From assembly GCA_949825045.1 (NCBI GenBank), contig OX463832.1, positions 18,408,552-18,472,551 on the forward strand: a DNA stretch of 64,000 bases, in the 5' to 3' direction. Source of the stretch: Argyresthia goedartella (Eukaryota > Arthropoda > Insecta > Lepidoptera > Argyresthiidae). The translations under genes and the position numbers were made by a program. Each line of letters opens with the position of its first letter. The stretch's first letter is position 1. The notes beneath the pieces were generated by a model. It had not been told where the DNA came from and did no database searches. It was given only the letters and a program-made list of their open reading frames with translations. Of this stretch, positions 37,301 to 58,317 are shown piece after piece.

Positions 37301-39022
37301 TTATTCCAATGCTATGCTGTTATGTGGGCTGTTAAAAAGTTTTCTTTGATCTAGATCGGTAATTACTACGCCGTCTAAAGATCGTACTCTACTAAGCGCC
37401 ACATAAGCTTGTCCTTTGGCGAATGTTTTTGGTCCAAGAATATAACTGCCTTATTGACTATAGTGCCCTGTAGTTTATGCACGGTAACGGCCCAACTTGA
37501 TATCAGTGGAATCATAACTCTCTCTATTTTTCCCCTCTCTATTTTTCCCGAACCTTTATTCCCCTGAAAACAAACACTCGCTGGAGCTATGTTCACCCAA
37601 CCATTTTCATCTTGGCGACTTCTGCCGATGGAACGGTCATCAAAATCAACGAGGACTTTCTTAGGCAGCTCTCCGTCTTCCAATTGGTCTCTTCGTAAGT
37701 CTTCCCACTCAAACCCCCGAACTACCCCCATTTGCCGTTAACTAAGCCTTCGCTGACCCTAACATTCATTCGTAGCATCACTTGTGTACCTATATCTAGC
37801 TTTATGTGGGATACTAGGCCTCCTGTATTATTAGGGTCCATTGGAACCGCAGCAGGTGGAGGTTTTTGACCGTAGTTATTGGGTTCCCTAGACTCGTCTC
37901 GAGCATTTATCGCGTTCAATTTCGTTGTTACTTTAGACAACATTGTCTGATTGTACGCATTTACGAGTTGTATGGTGGGATATATCCGAATAGCTTCTCC
38001 GTCGGCAAAAGTTTCCTTCTTATGGAACACGAGTCCTCTCCAAAAGTAGCTGATATTGCTCCATCGTTAGCTCACCCACCCGCAAATTGTTGAGCAAATC
38101 TACAAAGCCCGTATCGTTTTGTTAACGCATGTTGCGTGTCAGCTCGCAAAACCCAAAATACCTCCACAGATGCGGCTCTCCATGGAAATGGGCTGGTAAC
38201 TTAAAACAATAACTCCATTTTACAGGTAGGTAATTGCATCAAATCACCAAAAGCAAGTATATTTACACCGCCAAAGAGAGAGTCATTATTTTTCAACTCC
38301 TGAAGCCTCAAGTGGATACACCGCAACATTTCATAAGAGACCATAGAAATCTCATCGATAATTAACCAGCGGATTGTTTACCATTTGCGTCTCAGATCTT
38401 TTAAACGCTGACCCGGTAATTGTCGATCAGTAGTCGCTGAACCTTTTTCGATACCCAGTGATAACGCACTGTGAAGTGTTCGTCCATTCACTAGGCGAGC
38501 TGCAACTTCAGTAAGGGCAGTGACTTCAACAAAACACGGCCGAAGTAAAGAAGGTACAGTCTGTTTGTAACATCTTTTAATCTACTCTACTATTGCTTTC
38601 AGGGTGAAAGTTTTACCAGATCCCGCTCCGCCTGTTACAAACAATTTCATGGTATTATTTGGTGGCTCTTGGTGTCTTATTTCTGTATTGATCTTTGTTG
38701 TAATAGTATTCATTAAATTTCTTTGGTCCACATTCATACTTGACATTGTCATCGAAAACTCTGCGTCCGATATCACACGATTGTCAATGTCACCTAAATC
38801 ATCATCTTGTATTTCTACTTCGACCATATTAAAATCGAAACCTTCAACAATTGCACCTACTTGATCGTTATTTATTCGCGCATTTATATTTGAAGTGTTT
38901 TCATTTGGGTATCCCAGAGCTAAAACTTGAGCAATAACTTGTTGAAGTTCAGTCTGTACAGTTTGAAAACGTTCAACATCTTCACCCGGCTGTAGAGGTC
39001 GTAGTAAGTTGCTTTTAGCCAT
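37301..39022 (-). pseudogene. Helitron PIF1-type helicase
   Basis: Helitrons fuse a rolling-circle initiator to this 5'-3' DNA helicase. The first frame (39022-38582) ends in FVTGGAGSGKTFTLKAI, the Walker A motif. Beyond it, over broken frames, come RWLIIDEISMVS (Walker B, about 38350), LAFGDLMQLP (38225), and LDIGTQVMLRMNVRVSEGLV with NGKWG (37750). The frame 37731-37375 has WAVTVHKLQGT (helicase motif V/VI area), and after a shift GQAYVALSRVRSLDGVVI runs to TAA at 37303-37301. Motif order is complete, but at least three shifts and two stops are present. Confidence 0.85.
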
Positions 39023-40034
39023 AAAAGCATCTTCAGAACTTTATATTTATATTTTATTTATTTGGGAAGCCAACACAATAGACAAAATACTTCTTAGGTT
39101 GTGCATCTACGTTATCTATATCTAGTTGAGCATCGCATGCTACACAAATATCCTATTAAAAATCAAATATTGTATTATACACTAGAAAATCTCTAAATTC
39201 GAATTATTATTATATTTATAAAATGTATTATTAATCTATAAAACTTGCATGTACTTCATTTCCTTAAAACAATTGAAAAAGTATTACATTAATGTTTTAT
39301 TTACAAGAATAAAATACTGTAAAACTTAAAATTTTCAATGTAAACATAAACTTGATCAAAGGATGGACGTTAAAAATACAAATATAATTCAATTCATTAT
39401 AATAATTTCTAATAATTATTATTTAAAAAATACCTATTTATATACAACATAAAAGTATTTACACAAATATAAATAAAAACAATATTGCTCAGTTTCCAAA
39501 CAGTGTAAAGATAAAAAAAAGAATAAATGGCATCAATTAATTTACACATATATTTTTTGTGCAAAAAGATTTATATAAAACAAAGAAAATGGATAAAAAC
39601 TTACAATATGATTAAAATCAGTTAAAGATTCGGCTTTTCTCGGATATCATCGCCTAAATCCGGAGACGGAAATGACATGAAGTACATTACCGCGATTTCT
39701 TTTAGGTAGCATTCAATTTGAAGTATCATAAACGCAATGTATAGCACCTGCCAAAATGACATTACTAACAGGTAGACCTAAGAAATTTATTTTGCAGAAG
39801 CGACGTGAATTTGAACATTAATAACATCTATATATGGGACCATCTCGGAAGTGTACCCTATAAAATACAAAAACTTCGGTTGCTTCACAAACCCTGTCCA
39901 AATATTTTTTGATGATACTTACTTTCTTCTTTTTGAAATAAATTAGCTTCTTTTCTAAAATAGTTATATATAATATTTACAATTTTACGAAATTGAGCAT
40001 CAATTTTTTTACCACGCTTTAAAGGAGTTAGCCA
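39023..40034. other. AT-rich stretch upstream of the helicase
   Basis: The catalytic His-x-His and Tyr region of the Helitron initiator should precede the helicase here, but I could not find it in any frame. The sequence is strongly AT-rich with short A and T runs. A deletion between the two Helitron halves is the simplest reading. Confidence 0.45.
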
Positions 40035-40301
40035 AAAAAAAACCCAGAATCGCCGGAAATGTCATATATGCCGTTTTTATAGGCATAATATGTACATCAA
40101 AAATATATAATAAGTTACTGCAAAAACGACGTGTTATACTAGATATTTTAGATTAACACAGACTTGAATAGTAGGGACATGGCACGGAGCGCTTGAAAGT
40201 GTCGCTACAAAAACAGCACAAAATCGGGAAAATTGTACTGTTTGCAATCAGTCGCGCTTGGACGGTGACAGCCGATTGACATATCGGCAGCAAAAACAAA
40301 A

Positions 40302-40378
40302 ATGGTGACCTGCGACGTAAAAAGTTGTAAATCATACCCAAATCGCAATACACAAAAACAGGGAGTGTCGTATCACAA
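40302..40378 (+). CDS. THAP-domain first exon
   Basis: ATG at 40302 begins MVTCDVKSCKS, then GVSYHK, and the next bases give GTAAGTA, a near-ideal splice donor. Cys-x4-Cys at the N-terminus and the later SxHK are the first half of the THAP zinc-binding DNA-recognition domain; the remaining Cys, His and AVPTIF motif would lie in the next exon, which I did not find within the next kilobase. THAP proteins include host transcription factors and P-element transposases. About 26 codons are present. Confidence 0.55.
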
Positions 40379-40556
40379 GTAAGTATTATATTTTCAATTA
40401 CTATTGGCTTTAAATTGATTATCTATAAAATATTGTTCTCGAAAAAATCCTCAAACGAAAATCAACCATTCGACTGACGTAACTTTGTAGCGACGCGCGA
40501 CGCACAGTGAAACTGCCCGCTTCCTATATTTGAAAAACAATCCGATTTGGTTATTT

Positions 40557-40620
40557 TTCTATTCGTAATGTCAAAATTACTATTCGTAATGTCATTAGAT
40601 TACTATTCGTAATGTCATTA
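40557..40620. repeat. Triple ATTCGTAATGTCA repeat
   Basis: CTATTCGTAATGTCA occurs three times in 64 bases, with short AT spacers. It lies in the presumed intron after the THAP exon, with no function evident. Confidence 0.75.
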
Positions 40621-41734
40621 ATATGTTTGCCTATTTAATTATGTTTCAACTTTTTACTAATTAAACATGAGGTAAATGCGTGAGACCTCGCCCCTTAAGT
40701 AAAATTTTAGCTAGATATATTTTATTTCTACTTCTAATCACCGATTAAAAGTCACCGGGTATATGAGAGTTATCCGTAGATCAACTTTCCTAATATTGTG
40801 TCTATACACCACAAATCGGAACGTGACCGACCGTGACGCCGTTACAATTTTTCGTACTGTCTTGGTTCCGACGAATTCCGACAGGGGCGCTATTTTTCTT
40901 AGCCTCAAAATGGTAAGAAATTTAGTACGGGAAGGCCTATCCTTAGTATTTATATCGATGTAGGTTAATGACACAACAAAAAATATTTTAAACTCACACC
41001 TAAGCTATGCGGTACCACGTTACCACATGGAGGTTTCACACAAAAACATGCAACCTTCTTGGAGTTAGCCTGGCATCACGTGAAGACATGGCGAGGCGAG
41101 CAAAAAGGCGGGAAGATGGTGTCACACACCGTATTTAAAAAAAAAGATTTTGGCGGGCGTTCAGCTGATTTGTATAGAGTAGTGAAAAATAAAGTTGCTC
41201 CGATCAAATCGGTCTCATAGTGAAAGCTGCTCAAAATCATGTCCCTAACAATCCCCTTAAATACGACTATACCTTTCTGTTACAACCTGTATATTAAAGG
41301 GTATTAAAGTGACAGCGATAACATAAAATTCAAGAAAAATAAATTTATGTATATAGTATCATATCTTCTATACTACATCGTTTCGGGGGCTGATTTTTTT
41401 AAAAACATAACAGTTTGACTATAGTGAACCCATTTTTATAGATTTCGTCGCTGGCGATTCTGGGTTTTTTTTCTATGACCTTTTGTCCAAGTCTTTTGTT
41501 GAAGCCATGATACATAACTATTGTAAGTTAATTTTGATAAAATTTGATAGAATCGAATATTTTCACGAATGAAATTAGCATTCATAAACATAAATGTATC
41601 ATGTACGTCACACTGTTTTTATTGTCACTAAGAAGGCAGACTGTCAAAATAGTCAATTATTTTTCTTATTTCAATATAAAGGTTGTGTTAATTTTGAGCT
41701 ACAAATAGTACATTACTTCAGAGGGAAGAAAGTG

Positions 41735-41810
41735 ACAGTTCCATACCGAGATTATGGCATTTGCGCCACGAGCTTGCGAGGGGCGCAAACCATTTGAGGT
41801 ATGGAACTGT
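41735..41810. repeat. Strong hairpin
   Basis: Arms ACAGTTCCATACC and GGTATGGAACTGT are perfectly complementary (13 bases), and inside them ATTTGCGCC can pair with GGCGCAAA across ACGAGCTTGCGAG. The whole 76-base unit would make a long imperfect stem-loop. It could be a decayed miniature transposon or a structured RNA. Confidence 0.7.
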
Positions 41811-42222
41811 ACTTTATCCTGAGGTATGTATAGTGCTTTTTATTACACCTACGAGGAAAATAAATAATAATGCATAATAAATAAATGCATCCATATTTTA
41901 CAAAAAACACAAAGATAAATGCTAAATCAATCGAAGTTTTTGCGAAAATGCGCGGGCTTTTCCTTTTTTTTAATCGCCCGTTTCTGGAGTAGGCTAAGAT
42001 CATAAGGTCATGCAGCCACTTCTTCCGTGATTCCGCGCGTTTTATATACAAAAATAATTTCGTTTTTAATTTTCTGTATGCACCAAGGAGGTTGGTAACT
42101 GGTTAAAAAAAAACTGTATGTGGCCAGTAACAATTTACTTGAAATTTAATTAGTAGACAGTTAAAGTCTCTTTGCAGTATAACTGCTAACAAATTAAAAA
42201 AAAAACCGGGTATGTAATGGAA

Positions 42223-42294
42223 TTTCATACATACTTCCCATCTTTGGGTCGGAAGGATTTTCATACAAACTTCCATACCTTGGGATGAAAGGAT
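42223..42294. repeat. Two 36-bp tandem units
   Basis: Both units start TTTCATACA.ACTTCC and end GGAT (42223-42258 and 42259-42294), with several substitutions between them. Role unknown. Confidence 0.7.
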
Positions 42295-42500
42295 TTGAAG
42301 GGCGGGATAAAGGCGTTTCTTCCCTCTAATTGGTATAATTAGTATGTATTTTCAGAGCTGGTGTGATAAAAAGAGGTTTTGTTGCTCATATCGTTCTTGT
42401 ATTGTATTGAACAAGACAACGAGTAAAATAATTAAAGGTGATATCTGTAAATTGATAATTCTATGCGAGAGATGAGCGATTCACGACAATTTCCGAGGTT

Positions 42501-44073
42501 GGCCGAATCGTTAACTGATTTTAATCGTATTGTAACTAATTTGATTGCAATTACAATGTATATATGTAACTACGTTATTAAGTATAGTTTGACAAATAAA
42601 AGTTTTTAATTTTCTTCTTAAAATGGCAGGCTATCATTATAAATGTCATGTTTCATATATTTAGCAACTTGATTATATAGATTCGTTATCCGATTGACTG
42701 GTGCTGATGCACCTAAATAGGTATTAGTATGACTTCGCCTGAATGGTGTATAGTTCTTTGGTCTAAAATTGTGTTTTGGTATAGTAAAAGTTATGTTTTC
42801 GACTAGCTAATGTGAATCGATTTATTAATAATCTTGAATAAAAAGCATAAATCTAACATATCACGACGATCCGCTAGAGTGAGCGTTTTATATATGTTGA
42901 GCTGTGTCAGGTATGAATTATGACTCGGAAGAGTGTGCTCACCTAAACTAACATTGCGTAGAAATTTCTTCTGTACTCTTTCAATTCGTTCTGAATGTAC
43001 TTTATAATAAGGGTTCCATGCTATGGAGGAATACTCCAAGATGCTTCTCACTAGTTCTCACCAATGAATAATATAGGGTCAATACGTTAATGGGCTTTTT
43101 GAAACTTTTCGTTGTACGAAGTATTAGACCAGTAATCTTGAATGCGCTTTTAATGGTTTTGTCAATATGTGTAACAAACGTGAGTTTACTGTCCATTGTC
43201 AACCCAAAGTCCCTTATATCAGATCATCTAGTCAGGGCTATGCCATTGATGTGATAACAAAATCCGTGTTATTTACAGGACTTTTTCTGGTGAAAGAGAC
43301 AACAAAGCTCTTATTTATGTTTAAAGTCATTTTATTTAAGTGACACCAGACTGTCAATCTGTCCAGATCCTCCTGTAGCAATTCAGCATCTTTTTCACTC
43401 TCTATTTTTCGGTATAACTTTAAATCATCCGCATAAAGAAGGAAATCACTATTAAGAAAGCAATTACCGATGTCATTTATAAAAATGTTGAATAGGAGAG
43501 GGCCAAGGCGAGAACCTTGCGGCACACCAGTTCCAGCAGTGAACTCCGTCGATTCATAACCACCAACCACAACTTTTAGTTTCCTATCAACTAAGTATGT
43601 ATTAAACCATTTTAAAAAACTAACTTCGAATCCATAACCTCGTAACTTTTTTATAAGCATGGAGTGGTCAACTAAGTTGAATGCTTTCGACAAATCTATA
43701 TAGATGGCGTCAACTTGTTTTCTTTTGTCTATAAGTTCCGATAAGTCATTGACGTACAGAGCTAAGTTTGTCATAGTCGACCTGCCTTCTAATAAACCAT
43801 GTTGGTTGGACACAAATAGATGGTTCATCCGCTAAATGATGACTGGACAGATGACCGACTCGAACACTTTCGCAAAAACACAGAGTCTATATTTAGTTGT
43901 ATCATTTCTGTCACCATTCAAATGGGAACAACTCTTGATTCTTTCCAAAGTGATGGGATTACACCCTCCTTAAGCGACCTGTTAAATATTGTAGTTAGTG
44001 GAACTGCTAGTCTAGAGGCGCATTTTTTAACAAAAATGGGAGGAATATTATCTGGGCCAGCACCCTTATTTGC
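42501..44073 (-). mobile_element. Jockey-type LINE E, 5'-truncated, inside the Helitron
   Basis: On the minus strand the copy begins inside ORF2 just before the reverse transcriptase (NKGAGPDNIPPIFVKK) and runs to a stop at 42618 and an AT-rich 3' UTR. Its 5' junction at about 44073 fuses in frame with Helitron initiator sequence. The 3' boundary near 42500 is uncertain, because I could not identify the returning Helitron sequence or a target duplication. Confidence 0.75.
42618..44073 (-). pseudogene. LINE E reverse transcriptase and C-terminal domain
   Basis: Blocks in order: TIFNRSLKEGVIPSLWKE, a shift near 43920, HGLLEGRSTMTNLALYV, IYIDLSKAFNLVDH, GVPQGSRLGPLLFNIFINDI and FLLYADDLKLY (catalytic YADD intact). 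The tail has a shift near 43220 and another near 43050, then LEYSSIAWNPYY and LTLADRRDMLDL. The last residues (NRITNLYNQVAKYM and on) end at TAA 42620-42618. Sequence is similar in type to LINE D but clearly a different family member. Confidence 0.82.
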
Positions 44074-45280
44074 ATTTCTCACCATTGCGATAATATCGCT
44101 ACAGGCACGTTGCCAGTAGGCATTGGAACCTCTTGAACTGCGCATATTCAAATGTAGGTTGTCAACTAGACCTTCAGGTCTGTTGTTTCCTCGTCGCATT
44201 CTCAATACAACTCCAACGTTTTGCTGTGCCTTATAAAACTCCATCACAGAGAGGGCATAAAGAAGATAATCGTTACGCTGAAATCTTGTATCTTCACTCA
44301 TTATTCTTGCTTGGCAATAATCCAAGGGAGTAATATGATGATTTCTTGTTTTATGAAGCCTATTTTGCCCTTTCGGAAATAAGTAGAACCAACTCAATTC
44401 TTCGGCTCTTTTTTCGTTATTCATATGTAAAGGCTTGCTTCTCTAATCGTGCAGCGGTATATTGTTAGGGTCGCTTTCTATAACTGTTCTAGCTTGAGGA
44501 ATGTGTTCATTAATAGTCCGCAAAATTGACGTCGATACAATAATATAATTTTCTTCGCATTTTTGTGTTCTGCAATTAGAACCATAATTACCAAGGTTAT
44601 TTGTATCCGGCGGGTTTTGCTGCCTTGACAGGTTTTGCAAATTAACCAAAATTCCTGTAAATGTGTACTGGTTTGCATCGAGAATGTTACCTGATTTAGG
44701 TATCACGTTTTTAACCAAAGTGTACAAAGTGCCTTCGCAAAGAAATTTAATAGCACAACTTTTACCATTTTGTGCGAATCTGCCTTTTGGACCACGGATG
44801 TGCGAATCGAACACAAAACACGAATTGCCTCTTTTAAAAATTGCATTTGAAATCCTGTTGGCTGTTAAAATTCCAGAGTCGTACTTGTCAAATAATCTAC
44901 TTATTCACTTTTGAAGGTTCGGAAACCTATCATCTGTGTTATCAAGATGTCCACTAATGGTCTCTTCTTCCATTTCAATGCATATGTTACAAATATGCGA
45001 AAACGCTTTGAATTGTGTTTTCAATTCATGTGGTTTGATATATTCATTCTCAATTATATTAGGCACATTACGAGTGTTGATACTTTCAATGTACAGATTA
45101 TCGACCACAATCAAAATATTATCAATGACACCAGTGTCCCACAAAGTTATATATATAATTTTGCTGGTGGCTATTGATACAGCTGCTGCGGCTGTGCATT
45201 GTTTTCCACGACTTTCTTCCCTAAATGTATCATGTCCCTCATTAAAATATCCTCTTAGAATTTCACGTTCAGTATCAACG
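44074..45280 (-). pseudogene. Helitron initiator, piece 4 (N-terminal region)
   Basis: The minus strand continues from piece 3 with RGKQC, ITLWDTGVIDNILIVVDNLY, then FDSHIRGPKGRF, and after shifts RAEELSWFYLFPKGQNRL, ITPLDYCQARIMSEDTRFQR and NDYLLYALSVMEFYKAQQN, followed by SNAYWQRACSDIIAMVRN. The last blocks are the Helitron-like N-terminal domain that precedes the His-x-His and Tyr nuclease core. It stops at 44074 where LINE E starts. Shifts near 44440 and 44880 break it. Confidence 0.85.
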
Positions 45281-48197
45281 CATTATCAACTTCACAGGAT
45301 GGTTGACGGACTTTGTTACTGCGTACCCTGATGACTACCACATAATAACAGGTGATTTTAACCTAAGTATGGTCCGGTGGGAAACGGGTGAACCAGTACA
45401 TATTAAACGAGGAACGGTTGAGCTGCAAAATTCGGCATTCGAACTGACACATCACGCTAATCTTCTTGGCCTACGTCAGTTTAATCGTCATACCAATGTG
45501 TCAGGAAATACATTGGACTTGCTTTTCTCTTCATTTACCTTAGATGTTACTAAATGTGATGATCCAATGGTCAAGGAAGACCCCGCTCACACTACATTAA
45601 CTGTAAATGCAAATGAGATTACCATGCCTCCCTTGCCAAAGATCCCGCGTCGTAAGTATTTATTCAGAAAAGGTGACTACACAAAAATAAATGATGCACT
45701 TCGGTGTAATGACTGGACCCATATTCTTAATCATGGTACTATAGACGACGCAGTTACAATTCTATATGATAAAATAAATAGCGTGATAAAAGAGTATGTA
45801 CCACTAGTCATTACTAACACATCTAACCGCTACCCAATATGGTACAGTCGAGCACTCATTAACATTATCAAGGAAAAAAGCAAAGCACACGCACAATGGA
45901 AGAGCTACAAGAATCCAATTGACTATGCCACATTCTCACTCCTCAGAAAAAGACAAAAAGATATGGTAGTTGATTGTCATAAATCATACATACAAAGATC
46001 ACAAACTATAATAAAAAGGGATCCTAAACATCTTTGGTCATATATAAAATCAAAGAGAAAAAGTGACTCCGGGTACCCAAGTACCATGTATACAGGTAAT
46101 AATAAATTAAACAACGAAAAAGAGATCTGTGAAGCTTTCAGCGCTTTCTTTGAAAAAATGTTCAGGAAGCCAGCCGATGCATACCCTACTGTAGAGGCTC
46201 AAGATAGATATATAAACTCGATTAACACATTAAACATAACTACAGAACTCATTTCCAAACTATTGAAAACAATCGATCCCAACAAAGGACCTGGTAATGA
46301 TGGCATTCCACCTGGCTTTATTATCAGATGTAAAGATTCACTATTGGAACCCCTTAGTATTATATTTAACCGTTCTGTAAACGATGGTGAGTTCCCTTTG
46401 AAGTGGAAGGAGGCACTTATAGTGCCAATACATAAAAAAGACTCAAGATTGCACGTAGAAAATTACAGACCGATATCTATCTTAAACACATTTGGAAAGT
46501 TATTCGAAAAATTGATTCTTGACAAAATCTACCCCATTCTAATGCAAGGCATCCCAGAGGAGCAACATGGCTTTATTAGGGGTCGTTCAACCACATCTAA
46601 CTTGGCCGTTTTTGTTAGTGACGTACTTCAAGGTATGCGCTCTCATGGACAGGTGGACGTGATCTACACTGACTTTGAAAAAGCCTTTGACAGAGTAGAC
46701 CACATTATCCTGCTTCAAAAGCTGCAGACACTAGGCTTACGTGGGGATCTTCTACACTGGGTAAAATCATACGTATCTAATCGTCGACAGGCTGTGGTCA
46801 TAGCTGGACACCGATCTAACTACATTGATATACCCTCTGGAGTCCCACAAGGATCCTTACTAGGGCCCTTACTTTATGCAGCTTACCTTTTCGACATCAA
46901 TGAATGCTTCAAAAATGCTAAATTTCTACTTTATGCTGATGACAAAAAGATCTACACTAATATTAAAAGCGTTGTTGATTCGCAAAATCTTCAAGAGGAT
47001 TTAAACCGAGTAGGAGACTACTATGACAAAAATAGAATAGGTGTTAACACATCCAAATGCGTACATATAAGCTTCACAAGGAAAACTAATCCTATATCAA
47101 CTGTCTACAAACTTAATAATGTACCCATAAATAAAGACACTTGCATAAAGGACCTCGGTGTCATACTTGATTCTAAATTGACATTTTCGGCACACATAGA
47201 ATCAGTAAAAAGGAAAGCTTACAGAAATCTTGGCTTTGTAACACGAGTCTGTAAAGACTTCACAGATAGTATTTGTATAAAGATTATTTATTTTGCGTAC
47301 GTTCGCAGTGTCCTTGAATACTGCAGTCCTATTTGGAACCCACAATATACAAGCTATGTAAATGAAATCGAGAATATGCAAAAGAAATTCCTCAATTTTC
47401 TCAACTATCGCACCCGAAACCCAAACCTAAGCTACGCCGAATCATGTAACAAATATAAACTACTGACTCTAAAAGACCGGCGTGTTATAGCCGATATGTC
47501 ACTTCTGCATGATGTGTGCTCCGGTACTCTCGACTGCTCCCGTTTGGTCAATGATATTATCAGGTTATCTGCCCCGGCAAAACGTACCAGGCACACTCGT
47601 ACTAAACTTTTTCACGTCCCTTACAACCGTACCAATTTTGCATCTAACTGTACTTGTCTCAGATTGCCTAATACTTATAACAAACTTTTCTCAGACATTG
47701 ACCCATTCTGCGCCAGTAAACCTATGTTTAAGCGGAAAGTAGCGCTGAAGTTATTAGAAGACGACAAAACTGTATTAGACTAACGCCATGTAAACCTACT
47801 CTTACCATCGCAACAATACAACTTTGTAGATTATTGATCGAATTAGAATACATCGAGTTTTTAGCTGTAATTACCATTCATCTAAACACATAACACACAC
47901 GCAAACACAACAATACTAACTGATAAACACACACACACACACACCCATAAACAACCTTTCACACACACGCATACACTGCACATATTACTGTACACTGTAC
48001 CCTACAACATAATATGCACACAGATGTTTACTGTTTTTAAGTTACCTACCTACCTGTCTCTTTGAGTGTACTCTCACCTGTTCTTATTTGACTATTTACA
48101 TAGTTAAATCCTTAATTGGCCTAGTTATTTAATCTACATTCTTGTTTAATTTTATATATGGCTGTGGATTTTTGTTCAATAAATAAATAAATAAATA
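45281..48197 (+). mobile_element. Jockey-type LINE D, 5'-truncated, inside the Helitron
   Basis: The copy spans the end of the endonuclease, reverse transcriptase, 3' UTR and an (AATA)n tail (about 48177-48197). It is flanked by a likely 10-bp target duplication with two differences: AGTATCAACG (45271-45280) and AGTACCAATG (48198-48207). Removing it joins Helitron pieces 3 and 4 in one frame, which supports both boundaries. The 3' UTR holds CA-repeat runs around 47930. Confidence 0.88.
45282..47783 (+). CDS. LINE D ORF2 fragment: endonuclease end and reverse transcriptase
   Basis: A stop-free frame of 834 codons up to TAA, beginning without an ATG because the element is 5'-truncated. The endonuclease tail has HIITGDFNLSMVRW (GDFN block) and NTLDLLFSS, with EDPAHTTL in the place of the terminal SDH. 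Reverse transcriptase reads NYRPISILNTFGKLFEKLI, GFIRGRSTTSNLAVFV, IYTDFEKAFDRVDH, GVPQGSLLGPLLYAAYLFDI, FLLYADDKKIY (catalytic YADD) and DLGVILDSKLTFSAHI. The C-terminal part has SVLEYCSPIWNP and LTLKDRRVIADM. This is the best-preserved LINE frame in the window, though the lost 5' end makes it non-autonomous. Confidence 0.9.
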   Translation: MINFTGWLTDFVTAYPDDYHIITGDFNLSMVRWETGEPVHIKRGTVELQNSAFELTHHANLLGLRQFNRHTNVSGNTLDLLFSSFTLDVTKCDDPMVKEDPAHTTLTVNANEITMPPLPKIPRRKYLFRKGDYTKINDALRCNDWTHILNHGTIDDAVTILYDKINSVIKEYVPLVITNTSNRYPIWYSRALINIIKEKSKAHAQWKSYKNPIDYATFSLLRKRQKDMVVDCHKSYIQRSQTIIKRDPKHLWSYIKSKRKSDSGYPSTMYTGNNKLNNEKEICEAFSAFFEKMFRKPADAYPTVEAQDRYINSINTLNITTELISKLLKTIDPNKGPGNDGIPPGFIIRCKDSLLEPLSIIFNRSVNDGEFPLKWKEALIVPIHKKDSRLHVENYRPISILNTFGKLFEKLILDKIYPILMQGIPEEQHGFIRGRSTTSNLAVFVSDVLQGMRSHGQVDVIYTDFEKAFDRVDHIILLQKLQTLGLRGDLLHWVKSYVSNRRQAVVIAGHRSNYIDIPSGVPQGSLLGPLLYAAYLFDINECFKNAKFLLYADDKKIYTNIKSVVDSQNLQEDLNRVGDYYDKNRIGVNTSKCVHISFTRKTNPISTVYKLNNVPINKDTCIKDLGVILDSKLTFSAHIESVKRKAYRNLGFVTRVCKDFTDSICIKIIYFAYVRSVLEYCSPIWNPQYTSYVNEIENMQKKFLNFLNYRTRNPNLSYAESCNKYKLLTLKDRRVIADMSLLHDVCSGTLDCSRLVNDIIRLSAPAKRTRHTRTKLFHVPYNRTNFASNCTCLRLPNTYNKLFSDIDPFCASKPMFKRKVALKLLEDDKTVLD

Positions 48198-48207
48198 AGT
48201 ACCAATG

Positions 48208-48573
48208 TCTATAAAACAACTATGGTGGTTTGTTGTGGTAGCTTCGCTATGTGATCTTTCAGTGCGAATTTGTGGAGTGGAGTCGGCTGCTATTTGGCAA
48301 ATATCTCTAATATTAAAATGCACATTCGAGTAATCAATTTGTACATTTCTGTACAGCTGATTGTTTTCTTTGAGCCAATGTTATGCTGAATGTCAACCGA
48401 AAATTGACGTTGTATTTGAACCGATTCAAATTCGCAAACGATGACTATTCCAGCTGAAAACATTCTCAGAGGTGGCTGTTCAGCAATCTCTTCCAGATTT
48501 TTGCCAAACAATACTTGGCCTTGAAAGATATATTGTCCGAATCGTCCCGCGAGTTTTATTACCTTTATTAAAG
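48208..48573 (-). pseudogene. Helitron initiator, piece 3
   Basis: The minus strand reads VIKLAGRFGQ, then VLFGKNLEEIAEQPPLRM, GIVIVCEFESVQIQRQFSVD and, after a shift near 48320, NHHSCFIDIG. GQV.LF...EIAEQLP and the V...FE.. strand are typical of the N-terminal part of arthropod Helitron initiators. It connects to piece 2 across LINE C and to piece 4 across LINE D. Confidence 0.78.
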
Positions 48574-48729
48574 ATAAAGATAAAGACTTTTATTTGCGAT
48601 AGATATGGTTATACAAAGGTGGTACTATATAGTTTCAGTCAGATACACACATCCAGCTAATTAAATTATAGCATGCAAAACAATTATGACATAGAGCCAC
48701 ATAATTTTAAATAGTAGGTAACAAATTAG

Positions 48730-50539
48730 TCAAAGTTTACAATTGACACAAATTTTAACATTATGTGCTAGGAATTCCTTAATCGAGTAGAAAACATGTT
48801 GCATTAACCAATATCTTATAACTTTTTTAAATTTCTGTTTGTTTCTTATAATTTGGTGGTGACTTGGTAATTTGTTCCAAATTGTTGTGCACATAGCGTA
48901 GCAGTTTTTTGTAAATCTTGCACTTTTTGGGATCACATCAAGGGTAAGTTTGTTAGGTTTCCTTAGACTCCTAGATGTTAGGTTTTTCGCTTCTGTAAAC
49001 ATTTTTTTATTTTGAATCACAAATGTAGCTACTTCTAGAATATAAAGGCAGGGTAGAGGCATATATATAGAGCTTTAAATAATTGTTTACATGATACGTC
49101 TGGGGCAACTCCTACGATTGATCTAATACATTTCTTTTGAGCCACAAATGCCTTGTTTACGTCTGTGCTGTTTCCCCAAACAAGCAACCCGTATCTCAGT
49201 ACTGATTCTACGTATGCAAAGTATGCTGTTAATGCTGTGTCTCTGCTAGCCACTCTAGTCAGCTTACCAAGAGCATACGAAAACCTATTTAATTTATTGC
49301 AAACGCGATCTATTTGAAATTTCCAATGTAATTTATTACCAATGTCAATACCCAAAAATCTAACACATTCAGCATTTTTAACAATTATATTATTATGTGA
49401 TACATTAAGATTATTTATATTATTGAAATTGATATAACAGGTTTTATTAATATTTATATTTAAATTATTTTTATTTAACCAATTAATAGTATTTAATATT
49501 ACGTCATTTATTTCCTTTTCATGTATTGATAATGAATGTAGTTTTGGTGTTGTTATAATTACTGTTATGTCATCAGCGAATAATATATTTCTATACTTAG
49601 TAATTTCAGAAATATCGTTAATGTAGAGCAGAAATAGGAGCGGTCCGAGTACACTACCTTGAGGCACGCCGAATTTATTAAATTTAGGTTCGGATTTGTA
49701 AGTTTTTAAATTCCTTGCGGCATCAAATCCGGTAATCTCTACAGTTTGAGACCTATTTTTAGGTAGGTTTGAACCCAGTTATATGCCGGTCCTCTTACAC
49801 CGTATGTATAAAGTTTTGTCATAAGCAGCTTGTGGGACACGAAATCGAATGCCTCTGACATGTCAAAGAATAGAATTGTCACATAGTTATCATCGTTTAG
49901 TCTGTGAAGTATGTCGTTTACCAAATTAAATGTTGCTAGAGTTGTAGATTTTTCTCTTTGAAACCCTTATTGATTTTCGGTTATAATATTATACTTTGAC
50001 AAAAAAGATGAAAGTTTATTATGCATTACTTTTTCAAAGAGTTTCGAAAATATTGGTATTAGGGTAACAGGTCTATAATTTTCTATAAGATTCTTATCAC
50101 CTTTTTTGAATAAAGGTTTTACAATGCTTATCTTTAATCTGTCTGGAAAAATACCACTTTGTATGGACAAATTAATCAAGTAAGCTAATACTTCACTCAT
50201 CTCTTTCTTGCAGGCTTTAATTATTTTTGTACATATTTTATCATACCCTTCTGCGTTTGTATTGTTGAGGGTCATTGTATGTTTTTCAATCTCTATTTTG
50301 TCTGTTGGCGTTAAGTAAATCGAATTATTTATTAAAGTTTGGTTGGTATTTTTACAATTATTGTTTTCCACATTTGTCAGATCAATAAAGTAATTATTAA
50401 ATATATTTGATATTAATTTAGGATCTTTTATTGTTTCATTATTATAAATTAATTGATCTATATTTCTAGAAGTGTAAGAATTGTTTATTTCCTGATTGAT
50501 TATTTTCCAAGTAGCGCTACTTTTATGTTTGTGATTCAA
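48730..50539 (-). pseudogene. LINE C ORF2, reverse transcriptase and C-terminal part
   Basis: Over four frames: NYRPVTLIPIFSKLFEKVM (about 50060), a Gln codon turned TAA at about 49965, FFDMSEAFDFVSH (49850), MPQGSVLGPLLFLLYINDI (49650), ILFADDITVII (catalytic FADD, 49580) and FLGIDIGNKLHWKFQI. The C-terminal part has ALTAYFAYVESVLRYGLLVW and, after a shift near 49050, the Cys-containing end to 48730. The 150 bp after it are 3' UTR. Confidence 0.85.
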
Positions 50540-50756
50540 TATGTATTTTCTATTTATATTTCGTTTAGCTGTATTAATACATTTCTTTAAAAGTTTGTTG
50601 TAGTTTTGGTATTGCTCCTTATTATATGTAGTATTATGAGTATAATATAAATAACGTAACTTCCGCTTGGCAATACAACACTTTCTTATCCCTTTAGAAA
50701 TCCAATTTATTTTGCATTTGGTGTTAATTTTAATCCTTATATTTGGGAAACATAAC

Positions 50757-51479
50757 TTATAAAGTAAACAAAAAATATTGAAACTCGTTGAAAGCTTGAT
50801 TTAGATCATTTTGATTGTATACTGTATGGAAAGATAAGCTTTTCAAATAACTCTGAAATGTTGCAATGTTCTCTTCTGTATACATACTCTTGAACATATA
50901 AAAGGTTTCCGGTATATTCAGTGAATGTTTAAGCTTCATGCGTAAGAATTGAGCTGTATTATGATCCGATAAGCAAAGAGGAAGCACAAAACCATTCACA
51001 TTTCTCACGTTACTAATTATAAGATCAATGCACGATTTTTTTCTTGTAGGTTCTAAAATATCTAAATTAAGGTTATAATTTTTTAAAATGTCACTTAGTC
51101 TAGATGATTCATATTTTTGTTGTAACATATTTATATTTAAGTCTCCTGCTAATATTAATTTCTGGTTTTTGAATTTACAATGAAATTTATAAAGTAATAA
51201 CTCTAGTTTTTCAAAGAACATGTCCAAATTATGTTTCGTATCATTTGAAGGTCTATATATACAAATAATTACAGTGTTTTTGCAGGGAATCTTAATTGCA
51301 CAACATTCAAAATAGTTAGAGACTGAAACGTTCCCAAGAGATTCTAGTTGCTCATATTGAATACCTCTTTTTAAGAAAATGCAAGAACCACCTCTTCTGG
51401 TTTTTCTGCAGTAAAAAGCCGCTAGTTCGTAATTTGGCATCTTAACGTTTAATGTATCACTTTTTTTTAGGAACGTCAT
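50757..51479 (-). pseudogene. LINE C ORF2, endonuclease
   Basis: The frame has RRGGSCIFLK, VIICIYRPSND, LILAGDLNINML (catalytic Asp and Asn) and LCLSDHNTAQFL (terminal Asp-His). The Glu block expected before 51479 is not visible, and between here and ORF1 there is only about 30 bp, so the first 60 or so residues of the endonuclease appear deleted. A shift or stop near 50757 ends the frame before the linker. Confidence 0.8.
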
Positions 51480-51505
51480 CTATTATTCACGAATCATTTC
51501 TACTA

Positions 51506-52949
51506 TTATTCACGAAAAAACCTGTTGGTTTCAGGACGAACTTCTTCTCTGATTATGCTTGACAAGTTATAGTTACCTAAGTTTAATACAAATTCTTTTA
51601 AATCGTGGAAAATAATTCGAAAGCCTTGAGTGTTTATTCTACCATCACGTCGATTGTACATTTCAAAGTCGCATCTTAAGTGTAGATTAGAGTCTAATAA
51701 GTAAGCATATTCGTTGTCTTTATTGTTTCTGTGTAACATTGAGAACTTTTCGACTCTACTGTTATATAATGTAGTAAAGTGACCATATTTGTATGTTGGT
51801 ACGCAAATTATCACGTTTGTATTCACAATCTTCCTTATATTTTCATTAATTTTCACAACAAGATCTTCAAAATTTTCAGTCTTTTGAAAATCGGTTTCTC
51901 CTAGAAATAGTACGCCGTAGTCGTATTTGTTTAATTTTTTTGTCAATTTTTCAAAACATTCTAGTAGATTTTCAGTGCCAGCATTAGGGTAGCGAAAATG
52001 ATTGTATTCAAACTCATCGTTAAACATTTCAAACCCCAATTGCGCTATTTTAGTATTTTTATTGTTACTGACCATGCATATCTGTGGTTTTTTATGTGCC
52101 TGTGCTCTTTTAGATTGTGGTAGTCTATATTCAATATTGATATGACTATAATTTTCTGTGTTGATCTGTTCTTCTACTATTTCTTCCTCTAAAGTTGCGG
52201 GTAACGTTTTATTTATTTTATTTAGCTTTACCTTGTTCTTTGAAACATTTGGGTCAATGCATATTTTTTTTAGGTGGTCGAATTTTTTCTTGTATTTTGC
52301 TAGCTCTTTCTTTAGTTTACAGTTTTCAGATAGCATAATTTCGATTTCATGTTCTGCTGAGTTTAGCTGCGATTCCAATTTTGTAATTTTGTCTTTCATT
52401 ATATCCAGTTCTCTACCCACAATCATGTTGTTTAACTCTGGGCAACTTCTATTCATGTAAGATGGCTCTACCATTCGTGATTGAATTTTCTTGCTCGGTA
52501 TCAGACTGCAATGAATCGGCCAGGGATTCAAAAGAATTTCTAGTTTCGACCCTTATGATTTGGACTTCTCGTTTTCTATGTGTAATGTTGTCAATAGGAT
52601 TGATCATTGAGAGCTCAAGGGAGTTGAGTGTGTCATTGCATGATGTTGTCGGTTCTATATTCTCGACGTTGAATTTACTTGTTGTATTTGTCATATTCTG
52701 TTTTTTTGTTTGCAGTACTGGAACAGTGCGGCTCTTTTTTGTATTTACTGGGGTACTCGATTTTTTTAAACATTTCTCGCATTTCCATGTAGTCCGCCGT
52801 GTAATTTCCATAAGTATATAGCGTTTGTAGCTGACGTTTGAGCATATCTGATCTAAACATAATATCTGTTTGCACGTAGAACACTGGATATATTCGTTTC
52901 TCTTGCATGTTGAACGGCACTTGGAACAAGTGTTTAAGGTAAGTGGCAT
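51506..52949 (-). pseudogene. LINE C ORF1 with PHD-like finger, coiled coil and esterase-like domain
   Basis: The start at 52949 gives MPLTLNTCSKCRSTCKRN, then CSTCKQILCLDQIC and WKCEKCLKK, a PHD-like zinc finger as in CR1-group ORF1. A shift between 52531 and 52449 leads to LESQLNSAEHEIEIMLSENC, a heptad coiled coil, then an esterase-like half with YDYGVLFLGETDF (SGNH block III-like) and FRIIFHDLKEFVL (terminal His block). It shows the full domain order that copies A and B have only in part. Confidence 0.72.
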
Positions 52950-53212
52950 CTTGCGGAAGTTCTTAGAACCACTATGTTGTCAGTTTATCATCAATATATT
53001 TTCGTCTATAAGTTTGGCTACTCCTCACACGATGGCGCTCTTTGAAGTACACAAATTATGTCATAGATGGCGTCGTTTCACGTTTCTTTGTTCTAATGGG
53101 TATTGTATTATAGTATCTGTGGTATTGTGGACTTTTTTTTTACGTTACGATGGCACTACTGTTCGGCTATGAGAGTACTGTGCACGTTTACAAAATAAAA
53201 AAAATAGAAAAA

Positions 53213-53300
53213 ATTCTGAACCTGGGATTCGAACCACAGGTCCTTCTTCGTAGCGAATGGAAGACGGCCTCCTTAACCGTTTCGGCTATCGAGTCTTCGA
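53213..53300 (-). promoter_or_regulatory. tRNA-like A-box/B-box pair in LINE C 5' UTR
   Basis: On the minus strand TAGCCGAAACGG (A-box-like, about 53288-53277) is followed 42 bases later by GGTTCGAATCC (53235-53225), a perfect polymerase III B-box. The spacing suits a tRNA-type promoter. It lies inside the element, between the target duplication and the ORF1 start. It may be an internal promoter or a SINE head fused to the LINE; it is not a complete tRNA gene. Confidence 0.55.
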
Positions 53301-53762
53301 TAATACTCGATGAAAAACTTTATTGTATTGCAGCGTAGATGAATGTCAAAGCATAGGTGGGTGTGCTTTGTCGTTAGTGGACCTTGCACTGACGCGTTTA
53401 ATAATTGCAAATGCAATTACTAATATTCTGATTTATTCACTGAGATTTACGATTGTTTGAGTATTATTTATATATTGGTACTGGTATATTATTATTGTTT
53501 TTATCTTGAAGCACTTTTGTTTTTGTTTGCTGATACACTTTCTATTCCGTTGGTTTATAGAGTGATTTTTGTGTGTCATTTTTCACATATGTATCACTTT
53601 TATTATAATATGTTTTCTAATACATGTACAGTTTATCACTTGATTAACACGATTTACACAAAAATTTCTATTTATTCGTCTTAATACTATTTTTATTTAA
53701 TTTTGATCACGGAGACACGTTTTAGGGAATGTTTACATCGCATACGCATACGACGATCGCGA

Positions 53763-53912
53763 TATTAAAGGAATAACTCGAGATATAGCCGCTTTTCCAT
53801 ATCTAATAGATAAGCAATTTTCTGAGGTATGGTATCTAAAAACATGCTATTCCAATATGCTTGTGTTGGCATTCTTACTCCCCGAACACTGTTAGCACAC
53901 CTGTTACACATA
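53763..53912 (-). pseudogene. Helitron initiator, piece 2
   Basis: Fifty codons on the minus strand read CNRCANSVRGVRMPTQAYWN, then IPQKIAYLLDMEKRL and RVIPL. The C-x2-C followed by MPT and ...IP..L..L...EKRLISR pattern matches arthropod Helitron initiators just after their zinc-finger start. It begins at the TA where the mariner inserted and ends at the LINE C target word. One base is missing near the RLIS segment. Confidence 0.75.
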
Positions 53913-55209
53913 CATAGTCAGGTCATAAGTTCTGTCACATGTGCAATATGAAATAATTTAGACATGTTTATTATTTATGTAAACATTTATATAGCAAAAT
54001 GAACTTAATAAAACATAGATTCTTATGGTAATAAAGTTTACTCAAAATGACCCCCGCGATTTTGAATACAGGCCTTTATTCTGCGCGGCCAGTCGTCTAT
54101 CGCAGCACGAACGAGGTCCATGTCAATATCGGCGGCTGCCTTAATCAAGGATGCCTTGAGTGACTCCAAATCAGGATGAGCAGGCCTTTTCCTCCAAGTG
54201 TTGCCATATCTTGTAATCTAACGGACTCAAATCTGGACTGGAGGAGGGCCAGTCTTCGTGCCAGATGAAGTCGATTTCACGCGCCGCCAGCCAGTCTTGT
54301 GTGCTTTTCGCTCTATGAGCTGGCGCAGAATCTTGTTGGAATACCCAGTGCCTGTTATTAAACATGGTATGAGAAACAGGTTCCACAAGGTTCTTGAGGA
54401 CTGTATTTTGATACACAACTGCATTCGTTTTTACGCCTTTCTCACAAAAATGTACCTCAGTTAAGCCCCAATAAGAGACTCCCAAGCAAACCATGAGCGA
54501 GGATAGAAAATGACCTCGTTGGACACGCGGAATACGGTTGCTCGCTTCTTCACTGCTGTGTGAACCTTATCACTTTGTTTGTTGTAGCTCTCTTCCACGG
54601 TGAAAAATTTTTCATCCGAAAAAAGAATTTCTCGATGCTTTTTTTCCGCGTACCGCTTCAACAAAGCGCGGCATCTCTTCAGTCTCAGGTCCATTAAACG
54701 AGCGTCCAAACGATGTCCTGTTTTTCTTCGATATGCCCTAAGCCCTAAGTCTTCATTTAACACCCTTTTCACCGTGGTCCTGCTTAACCCCATCTGAAGG
54801 GCCAACAGTTTCTGCTTACGTATGGGATTTCTTTGAATTCGCGCCTTCACAGCTTTTATCACTGCTGGAGTCCTAACAGAGCGAGGGCGACCACTTCTTG
54901 ACCTGTCATCTACACTAGAGTCTTCATTGTATCGTTTTATGGTACGATAAACGAATCTTTTGGTTATATTCAAATTTTTCAGTAAGTCGAAAATCTGAAT
55001 TGGCGCGTAACCGCAACGATGCAACGCAATAACTGCGACACGGTCTTCTTTAAGTGTCCACTCCATATTTAAAAATGAGGAAAATTCTAAAAAGTACACA
55101 TTTTTATTTTCATGAAAAATTCGAAATTCGAATTCAATAAACTTTTTTGTGGCTAGCGTTCTAAATTCAAAAGTTTTTATTGTGTGACAGAACTTATGAC
55201 CTGACTGTG
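53913..55209 (-). mobile_element. mariner transposon (DD37D type) inside the Helitron
   Basis: The element is 1297 bp with 27-bp terminal inverted repeats (53913-53939 and 55183-55209; one mismatch) starting CA.AGTCAGGTCATAAG, and TA on both sides, the mariner target duplication. One transposase frame lies between them on the minus strand. Length, repeats and target site are all as expected for an almost complete copy. It separates Helitron pieces 1 and 2. Confidence 0.94.
54171..55066 (-). pseudogene. mariner transposase, frameshifted
   Basis: Likely start is ATG near 55066 (MEWTLKEDRVAVIALH). An N-terminal helix-turn-helix pair and GRPRS hook precede the catalytic blocks EILFSDEKFF (first Asp), WVFQQDSAPAH (second Asp) and DLSPLDY (third Asp). 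I count 37 residues between the second and third Asp, giving DD37D, the signature of the maT branch. A frameshift near 54510 separates the first Asp from the rest, so this copy is dead. The piece after 54171 is the normal C-terminus. Confidence 0.9.
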
Positions 55210-55211
55210 TA

Positions 55212-55722
55212 GTAATACGCGCTGCTTCTCCTTTTAATTCATTGGCAACTGACTATCAACTGCAGTTGTTTGTATTTGGTAGCACCGTTTCCTACAAACA
55301 ATACAAATAACGTCCGCATATTTGAAGATACTCACTTCAAATTGACGTAGCTTTTCCCTGTAATTTGTATTATATGTTTGCTGGTGTTGGAGACGTGTTT
55401 GTCGTTCACGCATGGTCTCATTGAGCCGCCGGTCAGAACGCAATGTGTTTTATGTATGAAGTCTTTCTTTACGCCTTTCAGCGCTCTCTTGACTTCTCAA
55501 TGAAGCCATGCGAGATGCGCTGGCAGAAATTCTCGCTTGATATTCATCAACGCTCTCTTGGCTTCTTTGTAAAGCCATGCGACAAGCATTGGCTAGACGT
55601 TTTCTTTCCTTTTCATGATCTTTATCAACATGAACCGTTTTCTGAACACGATCATCATTACTCTGATTATTACGTTTTTTATATATGGCGCTAACTTTTT
55701 TAGTTTTCCGACCTAGACCCAT
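55212..55722 (-). pseudogene. Helitron initiator, piece 1 (N-terminus)
   Basis: ATG at 55722 (MGLGRKTKKVSAI) begins an Arg/Gln/Ser-rich region with a repeated unit (RLANACRMALQRSQESVDE, then ASRMASLRSQESAERR), followed by YREKLRQFEVSIF and VICIVCRKRCY. Such basic, repeated N-termini followed by a C-x2-C are common in arthropod Helitron initiators. A shift near 55440 splits it, and a stop after LPMN is one frame away from the sequence that rejoins piece 2 across the mariner. Confidence 0.72.
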
Positions 55723-57160
55723 TTTTGTTTATACTTTGTGCAACTTGACAAATTATACATATGCAATCTAGCAAATAGCATTAACAAATAAACAAGAACT
55801 ATAATAGAACTTGAAAAAAAAAGCCACCACTACGCTTGGATAAAAATTACATTTTTGTGTTAAACCTTAGAGATAAATAGGTACCTTTATTATTTATTAG
55901 TTATTTTTTCAAAATTGAATTTTCTTGCTGCTATTTAATCTAGTGCTTGAATTTGGCATGTTTATAGTAACTTGATTATTTGTTTATATTTAAAATAGAG
56001 ATAGCAGTCTACGACGGATTTTCTTGTTTTTTTTTATTAAGTTTATAGTATAAATTCTTCGAGTCGGGGGTTTCAAAATTATTTTATCCTTTTTCAACTA
56101 CGTTTTAACCGTCGTGGGTTTTTTCAAATTTTTTAAATTTGTTTTTTATATTCGTTACGACAAGAACGGCAAATTTTGAAAAAGCAGACTCGTGAAATTT
56201 TTCTCAAGTTACCAAAATTATGATCATGTCGAAGTTTATGTCGAATTCCAGCAACCACAACATTGCTGATGTCAGAGCAAAAGCCCTAATGTAAGTAAGA
56301 TACTGATGCTAAGATCCTGGAGTCAAACTGTTGTGATTGTCCAGCTTCTGCAGGTGGGAATTTTTATCTACTGCGAAATTGCATATGTATTGCCGTGACA
56401 AACGATTGTAGTTTTCTTGATAATTTATAACGCGTTTGATATTTAAACTACAATATGCTCTTCCTCTCAATGACCCAAGGCATCATATGATGCCATTTTC
56501 CCGTTATAGGTTTTGAATTTTGATACTTTAGGTTTTGAATTTTAATGGCATAAGGTTCAAAATCGCGATGCCTAAAAACAACCTGGGGGTTCGAGAATTA
56601 AGCTTATTGTAGATCTTTATTTGTTTGTTATGGTAATAGGTATGCAATTTTGTATATTATTGTACAAATATTTTCTTGCAACATTAATTATACCTATGAT
56701 TTTAATTTTAAGGTGGTTGCATTGCAACCATTCCGTACTGTTTTTATTATGTCTTGAGAAGCGGACCTGTGATCACATGTATCACCATATACCCGCGGTA
56801 TATCGAACCGGTGCAGTGCAGACCATAGACTTATTGGCCCAGAACCCAGACTGCCTATACCAGCAACTCAAGAATAAAGAGATTTGGGGAGGGAAGTCGG
56901 CTAAATCAACAGTAATCGGTTTTCAAATGCTGGGAATTGGGTGAAATAGTCTTAAAGAGGACCGATTATCCACCCGTGTTCAGCGGGCGTCCCACCTCAT
57001 CATCTATCTATTTACCCGTGGTACTGCCGGTGGTACTTCTGATAGTATCAATGCTGAGTCTATTAAAACGCGTTGGCTTTCGGTAAACGACTAATTATTT
57101 TTATTTATCATTGCTACCTTCACATACATTTTGTTATACAACATTGCCAGTATTAATATT
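55723..57160. other. Spacer between the Helitron and copia 2
   Basis: No gene is recognised. A 107-codon plus frame (56621-56944) has no known domain. CACCCGTGTTCAGCGGGCG near 56971 can form a small stem. The Helitron 5' terminus should lie in the first few hundred bases, but I could not fix it. Confidence 0.4.
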
Positions 57161-57225
57161 AAAACTGATATCCCCTCTTAACAAAATATCTAATGATAAC
57201 TGACTCTTAAGTGTTAATTAGGTAC

Positions 57226-58284
57226 CTAGTCCATAGGTCTCAGGCCTATAATTTTCATAAATTTGTAGTGCTTAGTTGGCAAGAGTCCTTTAGTAAGTAA
57301 GTCAGCAGGCATATCTTGAGTCGAAATGTATTTAACATTAACAAGATTGTTTCTAATTGCATCTCTAATATAGTGAAATCGTACATCAATTTGTTTCGAC
57401 CTATTATGCGACTGATGGCTTAATGTCATTTTTAATGCACTCTGATTATCACAATATAATGTAATTATATATAATTTACCTAAGATCTCAGACATTAAAT
57501 TTCTTAAATAGATAGCTTCCCTGCATGCCTCTCATAGAGCTACATATTCTGCCTCAGTGCTTGACAAAGATACAGTCCTCTGTTTCCTGCTTTGCCATGA
57601 GATGACAGACCCACACATAATAAAGCAGTAACCAGTATAGGATTTCCTGTCTAATTTATCACTTGCCCAATCGGCATCTGAAAAACCTGTTAACTCTACA
57701 TTTTCTGTATTGTACTTTAAACAATAATTTTTAGTCTTTTGTAAATACTTCAGAACTCGTTTTGCATAACTATAATGACTCTCATTGTGACTATTATTAA
57801 ACTGACTAAGATAACTCACGGCATATGATATATCTGGTCTCGTCAAAACAGCTAAATACATCAAACTTCCTATCAGTGCTTGATATGGAATATCAGTATA
57901 CCATTTTTCTGACTTTTCCAAGTTCAGTTTAGATTCAATAGGAGTATCTATAGATCTACAATTGGCTATGTTAAACCTAGACAACAATTGTTCAATGTAT
58001 TCATGTTGATCTACTGTTATAGTAGAACAATTCCTATCCACATTGACTCTCATTCCCAAATACCTTCTAACTCTACCTAAATCCTTCAATTTAAATTCGG
58101 AGCTTAGTGCTGTTATCAGTTTATCTGTCTCTTCAGTACTATTTGAGTATGCCAAAAAATCATCAACATATAAAGTAACTATAATCTTAACATCATTAGA
58201 TATCTTTATAAACAAACATGGATCAAATTTACTAATTTTAAAGCCAAGTTTACACAAACAATCTGTAACTCTTTCATACCACAT
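57226..58284 (-). pseudogene. Copia 2 reverse transcriptase end and RNase H
   Basis: The frame starts at MWYERVTDCLCKLGF, inside the polymerase, and has IIVTLYVDDFLAYS (catalytic YVDD), RRYLGMRV, LIGSLMYLAVLTRPDISYAV, then RNase H with GFSDADWASDKLDRKSYTG, SLSSTEAEYVAL and, past a stop near 57533, LYCDNQSALKMTL and DVRFHYIRDAI. LADLLTKGL-type sequence ends it. Catalytic residues are intact. It is a different copia family from the element at 14600. Confidence 0.87.
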
Positions 58285-58317
58285 CTAAGATGTGGTATGA
58301 AAGAGTTACAGATTGTT
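58257..58317. repeat. Perfect palindrome with 30-base arms
   Basis: Arms 58257-58286 and 58288-58317 are exact reverse complements around one central base (58287). The left arm is the copia 2 coding sequence for MWYERVTDC; the right arm is its inverted copy. It marks the exact place where copia 2 becomes unreadable. Confidence 0.95.

What the first reader, a model, noticed from the sequence alone, without database searches (positions are those of the whole stretch)
44074..55722. One Helitron initiator gene split by three insertions whose removal restores its frame
Four minus-strand pieces (55212-55722, 53763-53912, 48208-48573, 44074-45280) read in order as the N-terminal half of an arthropod Helitron initiator. 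The gaps are a mariner with TA on both sides, LINE C with identical 8-bp flanks TATTAAAG, and LINE D with a 10-bp flank matching at 8 positions. Taking out LINE C plus one flank copy joins ..VIPLIK to VIKLAGRFGQ in frame; taking out LINE D joins FIDIG to EREILRGY in frame; taking out the mariner joins the basic N-terminus to CNRCANSV. The insert ages can be ordered by how far each has decayed.
Basis: partly seen in the sequence, partly recalled or inferred. Interest (0 to 1): 0.75.

Follow-up and report, generated by a model that had tools for sequence, protein, structure and literature searches.

The report
Dead Helitron broken by nested transposons
An already dead rolling-circle transposon gene was later hit by a mariner and two LINE retrotransposons, and duplicate copies of the same DNA nearby still show the sites empty; it is ordinary genome archaeology with an unusually clean record.

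Summary
The geometry is right. Four minus-strand pieces belong to one Helitron and are colinear with a near-complete relative on another chromosome. The gaps are a mariner (53913-55209, TA duplicated), LINE C (48574-53762, TATTAAAG duplicated) and LINE D (45275-48197). Natural proof comes from 12 other copies of the segment on the same chromosome (16.3-18.9 Mb): LINE D is absent in 12 of 12, LINE C in 11, the mariner in 11. The exception, the window's closest copy, has LINE C and mariner but not LINE D, so LINE D is the youngest of the three.

Corrections: LINE D's 10-bp flank is not a target duplication (six of its bases are LINE D; the real one is 3-4 bp). The Helitron continues past 44074: its helicase half is at 37253-39042. 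'Removal restores its frame' holds only at the junctions: an N-terminal stop, frameshifts, another stop and loss of the catalytic Rep core are shared with copies that lack the inserts, so the gene was dead first. LINE C and mariner could not be ordered. A new member of a known kind; low interest.

The parts
55212..55722 (-). Helitron piece 1: basic N-terminus from ATG (MGLGRKTKKVS...); in-frame TAA present in all 8 C26 sequences aligned; 22-nt deletion at its 3' end shared only with copy c16896
53913..55209 (-). mariner-like DNA transposon, TA duplicated at 53911-53912 and 55210-55211, transposase split by a frameshift
   Evidence: (HTH_29 50.3 bits; DDE_3 25.5 bits, below cut-off); absent at this site in 11 of 12 other copies
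53763..53912 (-). Helitron piece 2 (CNRCANSV...), holds an older frameshift
48574..53762 (-). LINE C, non-LTR retrotransposon with broken ORF1 and ORF2; 8-bp duplication TATTAAAG at 48566-48573 and 53763-53770
   Evidence: RVT_1 51.5 bits; absent in 11 of 12 other copies
48202..48573 (-). Helitron piece 3 (VIKLAGRFGQ...FIDIG), holds an older frameshift
45275..48197 (+). LINE D, 5'-truncated non-LTR retrotransposon, 845-aa open frame, (AATA)n tail; flank duplication only (A)GTA
   Evidence: (RVT_1 102.4 bits); absent in 12 of 12 other copies
44074..45274 (-). Helitron piece 4 (TEREILRGY... to AMVRN), equivalent to the L031 stretch with a VTD-type deubiquitinase domain; two in-frame stops (TAG shared with the copies, TGA seen in the window alone among those aligned)
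39043..44073 (-). Filler that replaces about 1.27 kb of Helitron (the Rep catalytic core): starts with a 5'-truncated LINE reverse transcriptase (43238-44073), ends in an A-rich tail; carries later inserts at about 40158-40960 (shared with c16896) and 41706-42368 (window only)
   Evidence: (RVT_1 86 bits)
37253..39042 (-). Helitron C-terminal piece: helicase half, 77-86% protein identity to L029
36603..37252 (-). Helitron 3' non-coding repeats, ending in CTCCGTTCCGTCGTGGG as L029 and L032 do
35790..58292 (.). Reach, in window coordinates, of the segment shared with other C26 copies (left edge limited by what was fetched; right edge is a fold-back junction in the window)

Best explanation
A Helitron (rolling-circle transposon coding for a Rep/PIF1-helicase protein with an N-terminal deubiquitinase-like domain) died in the ancestor of a chromosomal segment: its Rep catalytic core was replaced by LINE-derived filler and its reading frame took stops and frameshifts. 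The segment, flanks included, was then copied to at least 13 places over 2.6 Mb of chromosome C26 by segmental duplication, not by Helitron transposition. On the branch leading to the window and copy c16896 a mariner (cut and paste, TA target), LINE C (target-primed reverse transcription, 8-bp duplication), a 0.8-kb element and a 22-nt deletion were added. After those two separated, LINE D (5'-truncated, 3-4 bp duplication) and a 0.66-kb element entered the window copy alone. Shown: colinearity, empty sites, shared lesions, loss of the core, LINE D youngest. Inferred: the enzymatic mechanisms (from the families) and the duplication mechanism.
For: Colinear hits on one intact-order Helitron. 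Empty sites in natural copies: LINE D 12 of 12, LINE C 11 of 12, mariner 11 of 12; c16896 carries LINE C and mariner with shared junctions. Tree of window plus 10 copies puts window with c16896 (split support 100; 98.7% identity over 8317 columns). Rep core absent in window and all 10 copies tested, present in 4 of 4 non-C26 Helitrons. Frameshift near reference residue 125 in 4 of 5 natural copies tested (the fifth has lost that stretch), near 196-202 in 5 of 5, TAG at 529 in 4 of the 4 that reach it; none of these in L029. Flanks outside the Helitron shared by the copies. LINE D start fixed by 34 of 40 relatives.
Against: Gene conversion between copies could move or erase inserts and would blur the tree and any date. 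For c18209 and c18877 the fetched DNA does not reach the helicase half, so only the left break at 44074 is seen there; c16896 lacks about 90 bp around the right break. c16325 has an altered LINE C site with a small loss. The frameshift positions come from my own alignment scoring. LINE C's ends could not be checked on relatives: the search did not complete (and repeats).
Confidence: 0.95

Rival explanations
1. The gene was intact when the mariner, LINE C and LINE D struck, so that their removal alone gives a readable initiator.
For: The three junctions are in frame in natural empty copies apart from nearby older lesions; the joined parts match one protein.
Against: Copies that lack the inserts carry the same N-terminal TAA, frameshifts and TAG, and lack the Rep core.
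Confidence: 0.03
2. The pieces come from two or more different Helitrons brought together by rearrangement.
For: The N-terminal and helicase pieces are separated by about 5 kb of filler in the window, and the genome has many Helitrons (108 hits).
Against: Pieces 1-4 and the helicase piece all match L029 best at 76-86% DNA identity, in order and one strand; pieces 1-4 are contiguous in 11 other copies.
Confidence: 0.03
3. Precise excision of the inserts from the other copies, rather than later insertion into the window, explains the empty sites.
For: DNA transposons such as mariner can excise.
Against: LINEs have no excision step (established knowledge); the sites are empty without duplications; L029 on C10 is also uninterrupted there; inserts follow the tree.
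Confidence: 0.01

Closest known systems
Canonical animal Helitron (RepHel)
   Same: Relatives L029, L030, L031 have Helitron_like_N (99-120 bits) and L029 and L030 PIF1 helicase (94-98 bits); the window pieces are parts of that protein.
   Different: Window copy lacks the Rep core, has stops and frameshifts; the end where L029 and L032 homology stops shows no CTRR.
Helentron with VTD deubiquitinase (PMC9741609, passages; PMC4067079, passages)
   Same: L031 has a Herpes_teg_N (VTD) domain above Pfam's cut-off (32.0 against 25 bits).
   Different: No AP endonuclease found: no such Pfam domain in the L029, L030, L031 ORFs searched and no frame of 150 aa or more after the helicase in L029, whereas PMC9741609 says VTD-bearing Helitrons carry one.
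Nested transposon insertions used as a relative clock (REANNOTATE, PMC2672092, start of abstract seen in listing)
   Same: Younger elements interrupt older ones and give an order.
   Different: Here the order is also read from presence/absence among segmental copies.

Membership tests
Helitron | Rep (Helitron_like_N) region with HUH and tyrosine motifs | tested here: not met
   Absent in the window and 10 of 10 copies, present in L029-L032. Motif names recalled; the window holds a remnant of a Helitron, not a working one.
Helitron | PIF1-type helicase in the same protein | tested here: met
   Window 37253-39042 is 77-86% identical to L029_C, which has PIF1 at 98.5 bits; broken frame in the window.
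Helitron | 3' CTRR end with hairpin, insertion between A and T | tested here: inconclusive
   L029 and L032 homology ends after CTCCGTTCCGTCGTGGGTAAAA; no CTRR seen; 5' end not found.
Helentron | C-terminal AP endonuclease | tested here: not met
   None in L029/L030/L031 ORFs searched.
mariner | TA target duplication and terminal inverted repeats | tested here: met
mariner | DDE/D transposase | tested here: inconclusive
   HTH_29 50.3 bits (above cut-off), DDE_3 25.5 bits (below 28.6); frameshifted. DD37D spacing counted by eye, class name recalled.
Non-LTR retrotransposon (LINE C) | reverse transcriptase and target duplication | tested here: met
   RVT_1 51.5 bits; TATTAAAG duplicated, empty site seen.
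Non-LTR retrotransposon (LINE D) | reverse transcriptase and target duplication | tested here: met
   RVT_1 102.4 bits; duplication only 3-4 bp, which is weak by itself; empty site seen.

The most novel reading that the evidence does not exclude
The repeated segment is not a chance duplication but an actively spreading unit: a transposon-built block (dead Helitron plus filler) copied at least 13 times in both orientations within 2.6 Mb, two pairs nearly identical over most of 20 kb though 0.8-1.6 Mb apart. It may be a piRNA-cluster-like or heterochromatic amplicon whose copies each log new insertions. A smaller novel point: this family shows a VTD deubiquitinase domain in a Helitron with no AP endonuclease.
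Probability: 0.12. Interest if true: 0.5.

Novelty: new member of a known kind. Interest (0 to 1): 0.2.

Why it matters
It gives a worked case where nested insertions are proven by natural empty copies, and where a tempting 'frame restored by removing inserts' reading fails because the same lesions sit in copies without the inserts. The set of segment copies could date insertions and measure duplication and conversion on one chromosome. No new kind of system is involved.

Tried and rejected
Tried and rejected: (a) the 10-bp LINE D target duplication. (b) A tRNA-like stretch that I thought I saw by eye in LINE C's 5' part (about 53220-53300): ARAGORN found no tRNA in the window and Rfam nothing at E up to 1 in 53000-53780. 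(c) Ordering LINE C and mariner by decay: both are shared by the same two copies, with divergences like the flanks (98.9, 99.2 against 98.4-98.8%). (d) Deciding whether C26 is a sex chromosome or what the species is: not tested; records are unnamed.

Led nowhere: the genome search did not complete for Pfam PF14214, for LINE C's 5' end and for its 3' end. So LINE C's family, and its and the mariner's divergence from relatives genome-wide, are untested. Rows dropped: alignments under 80 bp, 150 bp and 500 bp; columns with fewer than 8 of 11 sequences in the tree; the two copies fetched last are not in the tree.
Full report
What was checked. The window is G000:C26:18408552-18472551, part of an unnamed 1.109-Gb genome in 89 contigs. 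The finding says that one Helitron gene on the minus strand is cut by a mariner and two LINEs.

The pieces are one Helitron. On L029 (chromosome C10) pieces p1 to p4 fall in order on 652-1597 (with the relative's longer N-terminal repeat array in between), 1599-1747, 1741-2117 and 2130-3355, at 76-86% DNA identity. On L031 (C4), whose 1051-aa frame is open, they cover residues 5-68, 84-132, 132-250 and 253-655. L029, L030 and L031 carry Helitron_like_N, and L029 and L030 PIF1 helicase. The Helitron does not stop at 44074: the helicase half is at 37253-39042 (77-86% protein identity, E down to 1e-145) and a 3' repeat region runs to about 36603.

The inserts are real. led to 12 other C26 places (16.3-18.9 Mb, both strands) where the same Helitron fragment is present at high identity together with the same foreign junction at 44074; hit lists of repeats are lower bounds. 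I fetched 10 with 20 kb each and two with 2.7 kb each. Window 45274 joins 48202 in 12 of 12 (no LINE D); 48573 joins 53771 in 11 of 12 (no LINE C; in c16325 with a small loss); 53912 joins 55212 in 11 of 12 (no mariner). The exception for LINE C and mariner is c16896, which has both, with the same LINE C 5' junction and mariner left junction read through. L029 is uninterrupted at the sites too.

Target duplications. Mariner: TA, with inverted ends. LINE C: TATTAAAG, single in the empty copies. 34 of 40 other LINE D places start matching at window 45275, one at 45274, five later, and the seven fetched copies carry TCAACG as LINE sequence. That leaves (A)GTA, and c16896 shows the site before insertion, CACGTTCAGTACCAATG.

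The gene was dead first. The Rep core (L029_M 320-431 and L029_C 1-303) has no match in the window or in any of 10 copies, but does in L029-L032. Instead there is filler (39043-44073) that starts with a 5'-truncated LINE reverse transcriptase and ends in an A-rich tail. In 7 of 10 copies the helicase match begins at the same residue (304); in c16896 at 316; in c18209 and c18877 the fetched DNA does not reach it. In five natural copies read against L031, a frameshift near residue 125 is in four (the fifth has lost that stretch), one near 196-202 in five, TAG at 529 in the four that reach it; the window has all three, L029 none. A TAA near the N-terminus is in the window and all seven copies aligned, not in L029. 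A 22-nt deletion beside the mariner is in the window and c16896 only. So taking the inserts away would not give a readable initiator.

Order. In the tree of 11 sequences (8317 columns) the window and c16896 form one side of a split with support 100 and are 98.7% identical. Shared by the two: LINE C, mariner, a 0.8-kb insert at about 40158-40960, the 22-nt deletion. Window only: LINE D, and a 0.66-kb insert at about 41706-42368, empty in 10 of 10. Other inserts follow the tree: a 1.3-kb element with inverted ends is shared by c18700, c17064 and c18209 and missing in c18877. LINE D's open frame of 845 aa and 99.0-99.5% identity to seven relatives agree with youth. LINE C against mariner stays open.

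How the copies arose. They share DNA outside the Helitron on both sides (35790-36602 and 55723-58292 in window terms, where fetched), and the Helitron in them lacks its catalytic core; so segmental duplication is the likely route (inference). c17064 and c18700, 1.6 Mb apart, align at 98.8% over 20 kb; c17530 and c18346, 0.8 Mb apart, at about 98.6% over 14.7 kb of pieces.

Comparison with what is known. Nested insertions and their use as a relative clock are known (PMC2672092, start of abstract in the listing). The family itself has one mild oddity: L031 has a VTD deubiquitinase domain (PF04843, 32.0 bits, cut-off 25), yet no AP endonuclease was found in this family, whereas PMC9741609 (passages) says VTD-bearing Helitrons carry one. 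The window's own piece gives only 13 bits for that domain. No search was made for whether this exception is already in print.

Verdict: a real, well-recorded but ordinary nest of transposons; the headline claim about the restored frame is wrong for the gene.

Noticed in passing
54690-54777 (-): Rfam's mir-2780 (102.8 bits, cut-off 95.5) lies inside the mariner transposase coding strand, suggesting that this 'microRNA' family is mariner sequence.
   Followed up: partly
58256-58316: Perfect 30-bp inverted repeat with a 1-base centre, exactly where the window's homology to 7 other copies stops (58292): a fold-back junction made in the window copy.
   Followed up: partly
L031:4847-7999 (-); window 44074-45274: VTD (herpes tegument-like) deubiquitinase domain in a Helitron without a detected AP endonuclease.
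   Followed up: partly
L022 (copy c18209), at window-equivalent 42891-42895: A second, independent copy of the same mariner (97.4% identical) at another TA in the same segment.
   Followed up: yes
43918-44442 (-): The Helitron frame runs in frame into the LINE reverse transcriptase at the old break at 44074; probably chance.
   Followed up: no
1-36000 and 57200-61900: Long ORFs read by eye as gypsy-, copia- and BEL-like elements and further LINEs; no host gene recognised (not searched in Pfam).
   Followed up: no
C26:16324556-16326107 (L014): Copy c16325 holds an internal partial duplication of the Helitron/LINE junction.
   Followed up: no
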